Shown in pieces: positions 52,614-56,268 of a stretch of DNA of 64,000 bases (the stretch's first letter is position 1; each line of letters opens with the position of its first letter). Source of the stretch: Solirubrobacterales bacterium. Its GTDB lineage: Bacteria; Actinomycetota; Thermoleophilia; Solirubrobacterales; Solirubrobacteraceae. The position numbers and the translations under genes are program-made. The notes beneath the pieces are model-generated. The model saw only the letters and a list, made by a program, of their open reading frames with translations, made no database searches and had not been told where the DNA came from. Where the stretch lies: positions 1-64,000 of the forward strand of contig DAIDME010000102.1 in the NCBI GenBank assembly GCA_027449125.1. Direction: 5' to 3'.

Positions 52614-53627
52614 CTACTTCGGCGGCTCGACGTCTTTGACGATCAGCAGCGCGATGTTGGTGAAGTCATCCCAGTAATCCGCGCCACTGCGTCTGTAGAG
52701 CACGAGCGGCACGCGCGCCTTGGCGATCTCTGCCTGAAGCGAGTCGACGAGCGTTCGCGCCTGGCTCGCGCGCAGGTAGGGGGAGAGCTCCTGCAGACCG
52801 GGCTTTCTGAGAAAGCGGATGACGTGTGTGAGTGCCCGCAGCGTCGCCGCCCAGTCGTGGTAGAAGGGAAACATGGGGGCGCTCCCGAGGCCGAGCGCCT
52901 GCGCCCAGGCGCTGTGGTCGATCGTGTAGTGACGGCCGTTTGGCATCTCGACGAGCTGCACGACTCCGGCGTTGTGCAGCTGGCCGAGCGCCTCGCGCAC
53001 GTTGCGCTCGGAGAAGCCGGCGGCGTCGCTGACCATGCTCACCGAGAGGCGGTGGGCCCTGATCGTGAGCAGTGCGCGCAGCACTTCGGCGCGTGCGCCG
53101 ATCCCGCAGAGGACCCGCATGCGCAGAGCGAAGGCGATCGGCTCGAGCAGCGCCGGCTCGAGCGACTTGCCCGAGCGCGTTGTCGGAAGCCGAATCAGAC
53201 CGTGGCGCGCAAACACCTCGTCGCACTGGCCGGCTCCTACCGGTGGCAGGGCTGGAAACAACGGCTCCGGCTGGGCCGTGGCGTGTGAGCGCCCAGGGCG
53301 CCTGGCCCTGCCGCCCTGCGCAAGCGCCCAGTCGAGCGCCGCGCCCGCAAGCCGCCTGTCCGTCTCGTCGCTACAGAGGTTCGCGAGCCGCTGTGCGCTG
53401 ACCAGGCGCTCATTCAGCGCAAGCCAGTCGAGCGCCTCGTCGAACAGGCGCGGGTCCTCGCGGGCGAGCTCCAGCGTGAAGAGCAAAAGCGCCTCCGGGT
53501 CGGCGACGCGTCGCTCCGGTGACGCGGGCCTGTGGCCCGAGACCCCGAGCTGCGCCCACTGCTCCCAGGCGAACGCCAGGCTGCGCTCCACGACCTCGTC
53601 TCTAAGCGTCGCGACCAAGGTCGTCAA
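52614..53627 (-). CDS. Winged-helix protein paired with a nucleotidyltransferase
   Basis: The protein of about 337 residues has an N-terminal helical part (ERSLAFAWEQWAQLGVSG), a winged helix in the middle (SVSMVSDAAGFSERNVREAL, then GQLHNAGVVQLV) and a C-terminal conserved domain (KARVPLVLYRRSGADYWDDF). No named family is certain. The TTG at 53627 overlaps the nucleotidyltransferase end by 26 bases. Such HTH plus nucleotidyltransferase pairs resemble type IV or defence-like modules, but neither role is shown here. The order on the minus strand is nucleotidyltransferase first. Confidence 0.65.
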   Translation of the reverse strand: MTTLVATLRDEVVERSLAFAWEQWAQLGVSGHRPASPERRVADPEALLLFTLELAREDPRLFDEALDWLALNERLVSAQRLANLCSDETDRRLAGAALDWALAQGGRARRPGRSHATAQPEPLFPALPPVGAGQCDEVFARHGLIRLPTTRSGKSLEPALLEPIAFALRMRVLCGIGARAEVLRALLTIRAHRLSVSMVSDAAGFSERNVREALGQLHNAGVVQLVEMPNGRHYTIDHSAWAQALGLGSAPMFPFYHDWAATLRALTHVIRFLRKPGLQELSPYLRASQARTLVDSLQAEIAKARVPLVLYRRSGADYWDDFTNIALLIVKDVEPPK

Positions 53628-54186
53628 CCCCAAAATCAGCGAGCGCCTGGGCGAGCGCCTTGTCGAACGGGCCGGGCATGTTGTGAGTGCGCGCCCACGC
53701 CGCGGCCTGGTGCAGCTCGGTCTCGGTCGGCTCGAGCTGCTGGAGGTCATTGAAGTCCCGCGACTCACGCCGGTCTGCCCAGGCGTAGAGCTTGAAGAAG
53801 ATCTGGTCGATCCGGGAGGCAAACGACACGCGCAACGCCGGGCCGTACTCGCGGCTCTGCAGCCGCTCGGCAAAACCGTCCGGCAGGCCCTGCTTGAGGA
53901 GCCCTGCGGGCCCGTGGTTCAGCCAGTTCTCGGGGAGGCCAAAATCGCGCGCCACAAGCTTGGCCGCCTGCGCGATCTCCTCGGGAAGCGGCTCGGCTGG
54001 CAGCAACGCACCGTTGTGCTCTAGCGCCACTACGTCGACGTCCCGCGTAACGCCTCTGGGGATGCCAAGCATGAGCAGGCCGCTGCCGCCGATCACCACC
54101 AGATGGGCGCTGAAGCCCATGAACCCGAGCTGTTCGCCCAGGGCGGCGAGTGCGCGGTCGAGCGAGTATGAGTCCAGATCGCCCAT
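53602..54186 (-). CDS. DUF6036-type nucleotidyltransferase
   Basis: The 194-residue protein has a polymerase-beta-like core: VVIGGSGLLMLGIPRGVTRD followed by DVDVVAL (the GS and DxD motifs), a helical segment and RIDQIFFKLYAWADRRESRD. It should transfer a nucleotide to an RNA or protein target, as in MNT/AbiEii-like systems. The ATG at 54186 is chosen; longer readings cover promoter repeats. A direct repeat, CAGATGT(T)ATAC, lies just upstream (54191-54223). It is transcribed first, with the winged-helix gene overlapping. Confidence 0.75.
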   Translation of the reverse strand: MGDLDSYSLDRALAALGEQLGFMGFSAHLVVIGGSGLLMLGIPRGVTRDVDVVALEHNGALLPAEPLPEEIAQAAKLVARDFGLPENWLNHGPAGLLKQGLPDGFAERLQSREYGPALRVSFASRIDQIFFKLYAWADRRESRDFNDLQQLEPTETELHQAAAWARTHNMPGPFDKALAQALADFGVDDLGRDA

Positions 54187-54190
54187 CGCC

Positions 54191-54223
54191 CAGATGTTAT
54201 ACAGCCTCAAAACAGATGTATAC
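54191..54223 (-). promoter_or_regulatory. Direct repeats in front of the nucleotidyltransferase gene
   Basis: CAGATGTTATAC (54191-54202) and CAGATGTATAC (54213-54223), read on the plus strand, start 22 bp apart, two helix turns. They overlap the AT-rich promoter and the leader, so they may be operator half-sites for the winged-helix partner. Confidence 0.5.
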
Positions 54224-54314
54224 CATCTCACAACGCCACTGGCCGACCGCCGATCGAGATGCGATACGGCGCCGCGGTTGCCGTATCCCGCCGCGGTTCG
54301 GTATGCTCACCACA

Positions 54315-54406
54315 GGTCAGATGGAGCCCTGACGCGCGGACCGGAGCGGCACCCAGCCGCAAGGCCCTCCGAACCGCCCACATGGAAAAGGGCTGATGAC
54401 TCCTTT
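54315..54406 (+). ncRNA. Fluoride riboswitch (crcB motif) aptamer
   Basis: The aptamer elements are in place. GTCA-GATGGAGCCC-TGAC (54317-54334) forms the first stem with the conserved ten-base loop. AACCGCCC (54372-54379) and GGGCTGATGACTCC (54390-54403) form the second stem and the CTGATGA segment. GGAG (54323-54326) can pair with CTCC (54400-54403) as the pseudoknot that closes the fluoride site. The order matches the Thermotoga aptamer as known from its structure, with a longer joining loop here (54335-54371). It precedes crcB and DUF190 genes, the usual partners. Confidence 0.9.
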
Positions 54407-54442
54407 CGCCGGTTGTCAAATGTCGAGCTGACGCGAAAGGAG
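54400..54442 (+). promoter_or_regulatory. Translational expression platform of the fluoride riboswitch
   Basis: CTCCTTTCGC (54400-54409) is exactly complementary to GCGAAAGGAG (54433-54442), which contains the ribosome-binding site of the first gene. The first four bases also belong to the aptamer pseudoknot. With fluoride bound the pseudoknot would hold CTCC and free the ribosome-binding site; without it a 10-bp hairpin would hide it. This predicts a translational ON switch. Confidence 0.8.
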
Positions 54443-54455
54443 CACTTCAAGGCGC

Positions 54456-54683
54456 ATGCCCACACTCCCCGACTGGGCGATTCAGATGCTGCAGGTGCTC
54501 GCCATCCTCGCGCTGGCGCGGCTCGTCACGGGCGTCAGCGCGCGCGCCGAGGCGATCATCCGGAAGCGCCGCGTACGCGGAAGCGGGCGAGGGCGCGCTG
54601 GCCGGCGGCTGTTCGAGGGGACCGTGCCCGCCCTGATCGAGGACGGCATGCCGGTTCTGGTCGTAAACGACGGTTCCCGATAG
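54456..54683 (+). CDS. Short membrane protein, first gene of the fluoride-regulated operon
   Basis: The 75-residue protein has one hydrophobic segment (IQMLQVLAILALARLVTGVS) followed by a basic stretch (ARAEAIIRKRRVRGSGRGR). It weakly recalls the N-terminus of NuoH/HyfC-type subunits (QxLxxLxxLAPLxxGVxxxxxA), and formate-hydrogenlyase genes are known downstream of some fluoride riboswitches. It stops where the family would continue, so it may be a remnant. The ATG at 54456 lies 13 bases from AAGGAG, slightly far. Function unknown. Confidence 0.5.
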   Translation: MPTLPDWAIQMLQVLAILALARLVTGVSARAEAIIRKRRVRGSGRGRAGRRLFEGTVPALIEDGMPVLVVNDGSR

Positions 54684-54698: not shown

Positions 54699-55025
54699 GT
54701 GCGGTTCGATCGGCGAGAATGGGCCGCGATCTAGGCCGGCGGCGCGATCGGTGCGCTCGCACGCGTGTGGCTCGCCCTGCACATCGTCCAGCGCGACACC
54801 TCGTGGCCCTGGACGATCTTTGCGACCAACGTCTGCGGGGCATTCTTGTTGGGGTACTTGGTCACGCGTCTGCAGGAGCGCCTGCCGCTGTCCACCTACC
54901 GCCGCCCACTGCTCGGAACCGGCTTCTGCGGTGCCTTCGCAACCTTCTCCACGATGGAGGTGGAGCTCTTGAAGATGGTGCACTGGCTGGCCTCGACGCT
55001 GGTGCGAACGGGGCGCGGGAGGTGA
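54699..55025 (+). pseudogene. crcB: crcB1 fluoride channel gene with in-frame TAG and deletion
   Basis: From GTG at 54699 the frame reads MRFDRREWAAI, then TAG at 54732-54734, then [13 protein letters not shown], the conserved GGxxGAxxR segment of CrcB/Fluc channels. It continues [19 protein letters not shown] and [19 protein letters not shown], after which the fourth helix is missing: only about 13 more residues precede the stop. The first start after the TAG (GTG 54765) would lose the conserved N-terminal motif. Both defects argue for a pseudogene. CrcB proteins export fluoride as dimers, in Actinobacteria often as two different chains. Confidence 0.8.
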
Positions 55026-55267
55026 CGCTCTGGCTCTGGCTGGCGGTGGCGGGCGTCGTGGGCTGCGGAGCGCTCCTTCGCTTCCTGGCTGACGGGCTGG
55101 TGAGCGCCCGCGCCGGTGGCGGCCTCCCGGTCGGCACGCTCGCGATCAACCTCACCGGCTCCCTTGCGCTCGGCCTGCTCACCGGTCTTGGCGCCCGCGG
55201 CAACCTGCTGCTGCTCGCCGGCTTCGCCGCGACCGCACCGAGCACGGTCTGCTCGCCGACGAGCTGA
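55022..55267 (+). pseudogene. crcB: crcB2 fluoride channel gene, 3' half deleted
   Basis: The 81 residues read MTLWLWLAVAGVVGCGALLR, then LPVGTLAINLTGSLALGLLT and NLLLLAGF, as in a CrcB N-terminal half, then switch to unrelated ATAPSTVCSPTS and stop. Helices three and four, including the Phe-box TTFST, are gone. The change falls where DUF190 sequence begins in another frame, so a deletion joined the two genes. The GTG start overlaps the crcB1 stop (GTGA). Confidence 0.8.
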
Positions 55268-56268
55268 TGGGCATATACGGCGACCAGCGCCTTGCCGCCA
55301 GCGTCGTGCTGCGCGGCGTCGCGGGGTTCGGGCGTCTTCACCATCTCCACAGCGACCGGATGCTCACGACCTCGGAGGATCTGCCGGTGGTCTCGATCGC
55401 GGTCGACGAGCGCTCGCGGATCGAGTCGGTGCTGGAGCCTGTCCTGCGGATAAAGCGCCGTGGTCTGACCACGCTCGAGCGCGCGCGCATGCTCTCCGGA
55501 GAGATCGGCCCGGTGGCGCTGCAAGATCTGCCCGGCCAGGCCACGCGCCTGACCGTGTACCTCGGCCGGCGTGAGCAGGTGCTGCGGAAGCCGGCCTTCA
55601 TCGCCGTCTGCGACCTGCTGCACCGCCGTGGCCTCACCGGGGCGACCGTGCTGCTCGGGGTCGACGGCACGCGCGCGGGCCGCCGTCACCGTGCGCGCTT
55701 CTTCAGCCGCAACGCGGACGTGCCGCTGGCGCTCGAGGCGGTCGCACCCGCCGAGCAGATCGCCGCCGTGCTGCCGGAGCTCGAGAGCCTGCTCGAGGCT
55801 CCGCTGCTGACGCTCGAGGGCGTGCGCATCCGCAAGCGCGACGGTGAGCTTCTCTCCGTCCCGCACGAGCTTCCCGGAACAGGCGAGCACGGGCTCGGGA
55901 TCTGGCAGAAGCTGACGGTGTACACCTCACACGCCGCGCTCGCCAGGAGCGGCCGTCCACCGCACGTCGAGCTCATCCACTGCCTGCTGCGCGAGACAGA
56001 TGCCGCCGGTGCGACCGCGCTGCGTGGCATCTGGGGCTTTCATGGCGACCACGCGCCGCACGGCCACCGGCTCCTCCAGATCCGGCGGCACGTCCCGGTC
56101 TGCACGGTGGTGATCGACAGGCCCGAGCGGATCGGGCGGACGTTTCAGATCATCGACGAGATCAGCGAGCAGCACGGCCTGGTCATCAGTGAGACGGTCC
56201 CGGCGGCCCAGGCGATGAGCGAATCAGCGATACGTGGCGGCCTACGACTCTCGAGGCCCGGCGCCTGA
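55267..56268 (+). CDS. DUF190 triple-domain protein lacking its N-terminus
   Basis: The 333-residue protein has three GlnB-like DUF190 units: ASVVLRGVAGFGRLHHLHSD; CDLLHRRGLTGATVLLGVDG; and HCLLRETDAAGATALRGIWG followed by FHGDHAPHG. DUF190 proteins accompany crcB genes and are thought to aid fluoride resistance. In the same frame before the ATG at 55267 the DNA reads RRDRTEHGLLADEL, the tail of the usual N-terminal strand and helix, so the native start was lost in the deletion that truncated crcB2. The shortened protein may still be made. Confidence 0.8.
   Translation: MGIYGDQRLAASVVLRGVAGFGRLHHLHSDRMLTTSEDLPVVSIAVDERSRIESVLEPVLRIKRRGLTTLERARMLSGEIGPVALQDLPGQATRLTVYLGRREQVLRKPAFIAVCDLLHRRGLTGATVLLGVDGTRAGRRHRARFFSRNADVPLALEAVAPAEQIAAVLPELESLLEAPLLTLEGVRIRKRDGELLSVPHELPGTGEHGLGIWQKLTVYTSHAALARSGRPPHVELIHCLLRETDAAGATALRGIWGFHGDHAPHGHRLLQIRRHVPVCTVVIDRPERIGRTFQIIDEISEQHGLVISETVPAAQAMSESAIRGGLRLSRPGA

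What the first reader, a model, noticed from the sequence alone, without database searches (positions are those of the whole stretch)
54315..54442. Fluoride riboswitch with a fully legible translational ON switch
All core elements of the crcB-motif aptamer are visible. The 3' pseudoknot strand CTCC begins a ten-base sequence (54400-54409) exactly complementary to the ribosome-binding region (54433-54442). The same four bases cannot serve both, which gives a clean mechanism: fluoride frees the ribosome-binding site.
Basis: partly seen in the sequence, partly recalled or inferred. Interest (0 to 1): 0.75.

Follow-up and report, generated by a model that had tools for sequence, protein, structure and literature searches.

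The report
Fluoride riboswitch before a broken operon
This is a real fluoride-sensing RNA switch that should hide or expose a ribosome-binding site, a known kind of switch, but here it sits in front of a deleted, broken copy of a fluoride-resistance operon whose intact twin lies elsewhere in the same genome.

Summary
54316-54403 carries every core element of the crcB/fluoride aptamer. 54400-54409 (CTCCTTTCGC) is exactly complementary to 54433-54442 (GCGAAAGGAG). RF01734 hits below its gathering score (22.6 vs 34 bits; E 7.6e-4 for the whole genome) because an extra hairpin (P2) makes Rfam misplace P1. In 18 relatives, P1, the pseudoknot and the ribosome-site helix are kept with covariation. 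A model built from them hits about two dozen genomes of the same order.

A second copy (C29+C68, joined by a 141-nt contig overlap) leads an intact operon: HyfC/E - HyfF - NuoD-like - NuoB-like - HyfB - Usp - CrcB - CrcB - DUF190. The window copy has lost about 7.4 kb, fusing the HyfC start to the Usp end; crcB1 has a stop codon and a 66-bp deletion; about 200 bp is missing between crcB2 and DUF190.

Likely mechanism: translational ON switch, with a four-base strand exchange (CUCC) on a standing six-pair stem. Translational fluoride riboswitches and 'formate hydrogen lyase' targets are already published. The surprise: this hydrogenase-like complex lacks its NiFe and most Fe-S cysteines in all four species examined. 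Fluoride binding was not tested.

The parts
54278..54307 (+). likely promoter: weak -35 TTGCCG (54278-54283), 18-nt spacer, -10 TATGCT (54302-54307); start expected at about 54313-54316
   Evidence: TANNNT lies 12-14 nt upstream of P1 in 17 of 18 relatives; the -35 is by eye only
54316..54333 (+). aptamer stem P1 GTCAG/CTGAC with loop ATGGAGCC
   Evidence: sequence; 95.6% of cells paired in 18 relatives, 2 pairs with changes on both sides
54323..54326 (+). pseudoknot 5' strand GGAG
   Evidence: pairs with 54400-54403; GC to AU double changes in 3 relatives
54334..54371 (+). inserted hairpin P2 between P1 and P3, the reason Rfam scores low
   Evidence: a hairpin of 16-38 nt at this place in all 18 relatives; -14.7 kcal/mol here vs -26.3 in the intact copy
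54372..54399 (+). conserved core AACC, stem P3 GCCC/GGGC (54376-54379 with 54390-54393), TGATGA
   Evidence: RF01734 alignment; near-invariant in 18 relatives
54400..54403 (+). shared strand CUCC: pseudoknot 3' strand or anti-ribosome-site strand
54400..54409 (+). 5' strand of the 10-bp switch helix
   Evidence: 98.3% of cells paired in 18 relatives
54433..54442 (+). 3' strand of the switch helix; GGAG (54439-54442) is the ribosome-binding site
   Evidence: GGAG/GGAA in all 18 relatives
54456..54683 (+). 75-aa chimeric ORF: HyfC-like N-terminus (to about 54581) fused in frame to the Usp C-terminus (from about 54601); a relic
   Evidence: blastn against C29 and C68, translation, tblastn Usp
54699..55016 (+). 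broken crcB1: in-frame TAG at 54732-54734, 66-bp deletion at 54982/54983
55022..55255 (+). truncated crcB2, C-terminus lost in a deletion of about 200 bp that joins it to DUF190
55228..56268 (+). DUF190 gene without its first codons; the rest is open
   Evidence: PF02641 E 3e-58; dN/dS 0.27 against the intact copy

Best explanation
A fluoride riboswitch of the translational ON type, with a P2 hairpin, heading a decayed duplicate of a fluoride-response operon. Proposed mechanism: transcription starts at about P1. Without fluoride, the leader's six-pair stem UUUCGC/GCGAAA zips on by four pairs, pulling CUCC (54400-54403) out of the aptamer pseudoknot and hiding GGAG (54439-54442). With Mg-fluoride bound, the pseudoknot GGAG(54323-54326)/CUCC holds, the four pairs cannot form, and the ribosome-binding site is open. 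Shown: the sequence elements, their mutual exclusion, and their conservation and covariation in relatives. Inferred: fluoride binding, the persistence of the six-pair stem, and translation rather than transcription as the controlled step. In this genome the working copy is on C29/C68. The window copy can at most switch a 75-aa chimera and perhaps the DUF190 remnant, so its output is probably without use.
For: RF01734 hits at both copies. Alignment of 18 relatives: aptamer 96.8% of cells paired (slid controls 28-56%), 12 cells with changes on both sides (0/500 shuffles reach this); switch helix 98.3% paired (slid controls 51-66%), 4 double changes (0/500). Chance of such a complement is 0-13 per 1000 shuffles in each relative. 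-10 box at a near-fixed distance from P1 in 17 of 18. In most relatives predicted GGAG pairing loosens when the pseudoknot bases are blocked. Standard-type fluoride riboswitches of the same family often carry the same arrangement: 21 of 39 have at least 8/9 complementarity. Decay: stop codon, three deletions and an in-frame fusion against the intact twin; no other genome among 28 of the genus shows the fused form. An intact operon lies on one contig in G079 (L109).
Against: RF01734 is below its gathering score. The ribosome site lies 13 nt before ATG, longer than the usual optimum, though 12-13 nt is kept in the HyfC-type relatives. Three of the four double changes in the switch helix come from one relative (L070) whose register is uncertain. 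Two relatives (L045, L087) carry CCCC and break one pair in both structures. In the window copy the freed GGAG can re-pair with CUCC of the weakened P2, and L033 and L087 show no predicted opening. The DUF190 remnant shows little sign of relaxed selection (24 vs 18 amino-acid changes on the two branches), so the copy may not be wholly dead.
Confidence: 0.85

Rival explanations
1. Functional short operon: the window copy is a streamlined fluoride-response unit in which the riboswitch controls the chimeric small protein and DUF190.
For: The aptamer core and switch helix are intact; the 75-aa fusion is in frame; DUF190 is still open with dN/dS 0.27.
Against: Both CrcB genes are broken; DUF190 has lost its normal start; no other genome of the genus shows this form.
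Confidence: 0.1
2. Transcriptional switch: the 54400-54442 helix acts as a terminator or a Rho-linked element rather than hiding the ribosome site.
For: Transcriptional fluoride riboswitches use the same strand in a terminator (PMC11077080).
Against: No U-run after the helix (sequence); the 3' strand holds the ribosome site GGAG/GGAA in all 18 relatives.
Confidence: 0.08
3. Dead aptamer: like the genes behind it, the window riboswitch no longer binds fluoride or switches.
For: Operon decay; P2 stem weaker than in the twin (-14.7 vs -26.3 kcal/mol); ON-state opening 0.34 vs 0.88.
Against: Every core position that is invariant in the 18 relatives is intact by construction of that set, and the switch helix is a perfect 10 of 10 Watson-Crick pairs.
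Confidence: 0.25

Closest known systems
Fluoride riboswitch, crcB motif, RF01734
   Same: P1 with the pseudoknot loop, P3, AACCGCC and UGAUGRCUCC core, location upstream of crcB-type genes
   Different: 38-nt hairpin inserted between P1 and P3; below Rfam's gathering score, as are all members of this subclass that RF01734 detected
Translational fluoride riboswitches (Pseudomonas syringae and Burkholderia pseudomallei, so named in PMC13273304)
   Same: no terminator; control presumed at the ribosome-binding site
   Different: here the mutually exclusive pairing is readable and its conservation was counted; the downstream operon is broken in the window
Transcriptional fluoride riboswitch of Bacillus cereus (PMC11077080)
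   Same: the pseudoknot 3' strand is claimed by a downstream hairpin in the apo state
   Different: the downstream hairpin there is a terminator, here a ribosome-site hairpin
crcB-motif RNAs upstream of 'formate hydrogen lyase' genes (Weinberg 2010, PMC2864571)
   Same: the intact twin precedes genes for an Hyf/Hyc-like complex
   Different: the complex here lacks the NiFe and most Fe-S ligands, so it is not a hydrogenase of known type

Membership tests
Fluoride riboswitch (RF01734) | covariance-model score at or above the gathering score (34 bits) | tested here: not met
   22.6 bits, E 7.6e-4 for the genome; the likely cause is the P2 insert and misplaced P1. A curator's threshold, not a feature of the RNA
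Fluoride riboswitch (RF01734) | P1 stem whose loop strand forms the pseudoknot with a CUCC-type strand | tested here: met
   GC to AU covariation in the pseudoknot
Fluoride riboswitch (RF01734) | AACCGCC junction, P3, UGAUGRC core | tested here: met
Fluoride riboswitch (RF01734) | upstream of fluoride-response genes | tested here: met
   crcB remnants and DUF190 in the window, intact CrcB-CrcB-DUF190 behind the twin
Fluoride riboswitch (RF01734) | binds fluoride with Mg2+ | not testable with these tools
   needs probing
Translational ON riboswitch | ribosome site paired in the apo form by a strand that the ligand-bound aptamer claims | tested here: met
   CUCC shared; covariation in 18 relatives; predicted GGAG opening, partial in the window
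Translational ON riboswitch | an intact regulated gene follows | tested here: not met
   window operon deleted and interrupted; met for the twin on C29/C68
NiFe formate hydrogenlyase / hydrogenase 4 (twin operon) | CxxC NiFe ligands in the large subunit and Fe-S cysteines in the small subunit | tested here: not met
   CGIC of HycE reads AGIA, no C-terminal Cys pair; CGGCNGCE reads CGSDGSEE and PGCPP reads PGSPP; losses shared by 4 species

The most novel reading that the evidence does not exclude
The window riboswitch is a relic of a Solirubrobacterales fluoride-response operon in which a lineage-specific riboswitch subclass controls a complex I / hydrogenase-like membrane machine without NiFe or normal Fe-S ligands, together with two CrcB channels. 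That would be a fluoride-induced, redox-free relative of formate hydrogenlyase.
Probability: 0.45. Interest if true: 0.6.

Novelty: new member of a known kind. Interest (0 to 1): 0.35.

Why it matters
The switch itself adds a well-documented case of translational fluoride control and a P2-bearing subclass that Rfam's cut-off misses. The operon matters more: 'formate hydrogen lyase' has been listed as a fluoride-riboswitch target since 2010 without, as far as I found in the papers held here, an explanation. In this lineage the complex lacks the metal ligands that hydrogen chemistry needs, so its role in fluoride stress must be something else and can be tested by deletion. The window copy is also a small natural experiment: a regulatory RNA outlasting the genes it served.

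Tried and rejected
Rfam's own placement of P1 inside the inserted hairpin: rejected, because the canonical P1-loop-P1 block lies at 54316-54333 and in the same place in all relatives. Intrinsic terminator: no U-run. Assembly error as the source of the broken operon: unlikely, because the two copies are only about 82% identical, the assembler overlap is 141 nt, and there are point changes as well as deletions. A conserved short form of the operon: not found in 28 genomes of the genus. Baker 2012 and Ren 2012 are not held, so whether their consensus names this exact hairpin P2 is inferred from the P1/P3 numbering used in PMC11077080. An error in my scripts (alignment rows shadowing locus names) left some loci without results; the missing searches and the promoter table were redone.

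Full report
Observation. The window reads, from 54316: P1 GTCAG, loop ATGGAGCC, P1 CTGAC, a 38-nt hairpin, AACC, P3 GCCC...GGGC, TGATGA, CTCCTTTCGC, a 23-nt loop, GCGAAAGGAG, 13 nt, ATG. The ten-base complement at the stated coordinates is exact. RF01734 matches 54334-54412 at 22.6 bits against a gathering score of 34, with E 7.6e-4 for that family over the 3.17-Mb genome. The low score has a simple cause: Rfam aligned P1 inside the extra hairpin.

Relatives. RF01734 over 146 genomes of the family gave hits in 41. Eighteen sequences share the P1 CAGATG form, the inserted hairpin and the CTCCTTTCGC-type helix. None of this subclass that RF01734 detected passes Rfam's cut-off, and some members are missed altogether. 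A pattern scan of GTDB contigs found nine, most titled Solirubrobacterales or Solirubrobacteraceae MAGs, one only Actinomycetes and one only bacterium. A covariance model (R1) hits 25 of 232 genomes of the order at E 1e-3 or better, most at 59-99 bits; many of these are its training sequences. Outside the order only weak matches appear in the class.

Structure test. On alignment A1 the aptamer pairs hold in 96.8% of cells (28-56% when slid), with 12 cells changed on both sides against 5.1 expected (0 of 500 shuffles); the pseudoknot includes GC to AU replacements in three sequences. The switch helix holds in 98.3% of cells (51-66% when slid) with four double changes (0 of 500). Three of those four come from one sequence, L070, with uncertain register. 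A 10/10 or 9/10 complement to the pseudoknot strand arises in 0-13 of 1000 shuffles per sequence. A TANNNT -10 box sits 12-14 nt before P1 in 17 of 18, so the RNA should begin at about P1.

Mechanism. CUCC 54400-54403 serves either the pseudoknot with 54323-54326 or the ribosome site 54439-54442. The remaining six pairs, UUUCGC/GCGAAA, are nearly invariant and do not clash with the aptamer, so I infer a standing stem on which four bases are exchanged. Nearest-neighbour energies for the window are -13.6 kcal/mol for ten pairs and -4.2 for six. With the pseudoknot bases blocked, mean unpaired probability of GGAG rises from 0.003 to 0.88 in the C29 copy and from 0.009 to 0.34 in the window copy; this model cannot represent the pseudoknot itself, and in two relatives (L033, L087) it predicts no opening. 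Many standard fluoride riboswitches of the family have the same design. Translational fluoride riboswitches are known (PMC13273304; PMC8814607), so this is not a new mechanism.

The operon. The genome has a second hit on C29, before a HyfC-like gene. C29 and C68 share an exact 141-nt end overlap, which joins them. The resulting operon is HyfC/E, HyfF, NuoD-like, NuoB-like, HyfB, Usp, CrcB, CrcB, DUF190. The same order is seen on single contigs of G079 and G077 in full, and up to Usp in G081 and G088. Against it the window copy has lost about 7.4 kb between HyfC and Usp, carries TAG in crcB1, lacks 66 bp of crcB1 and about 200 bp between crcB2 and DUF190. The fused form was not seen in the other genomes of the genus. 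DUF190 in the window still shows dN/dS 0.27 against the twin, so decay is probably recent.

The hydrogenase-like complex. Aligned to formate hydrogenlyase subunit 5 (7z0s), the large-subunit homologue reads AGIA where HycE has CGIC and has no C-terminal cysteine pair. The small-subunit homologue reads CGSDGSEE for CGGCNGCE and PGSPP for PGCPP. The losses are shared by four species. Weinberg et al. 2010 already placed crcB RNAs before 'formate hydrogen lyase' genes. At least in this lineage the complex cannot be a NiFe hydrogenase of known type. Its function is open; a fluoride-stress ion or proton pathway is a guess.

Verdict. Known kind, new member.

Noticed in passing
L078:223-2204 (-), L075, L076, L077: NuoD/HycE-like and NuoB/HycG-like subunits of the fluoride-riboswitch operon lack the NiFe cysteines and most Fe-S cysteines in all four species examined.
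   Followed up: partly
L055 (G076:C255:1-11467), also L056 and L057: One genome of the same genus has 11 RF01734 hits, 7 of them within one 11.5-kb contig, in front of varied genes: a fluoride-response island.
   Followed up: partly
L064, L065, L057, L062, L058: Several fluoride riboswitches in this genus come in divergent back-to-back pairs, roughly 50-150 nt apart.
   Followed up: no
window 53602-54231 (-): Nucleotidyltransferase-like gene (AbiEii / DUF6036, just under Pfam cut-offs) divergent from the riboswitch.
   Followed up: no
L045, L087: Two relatives carry CCCC instead of CUCC, breaking the same pair in both the pseudoknot and the ribosome helix.
   Followed up: no
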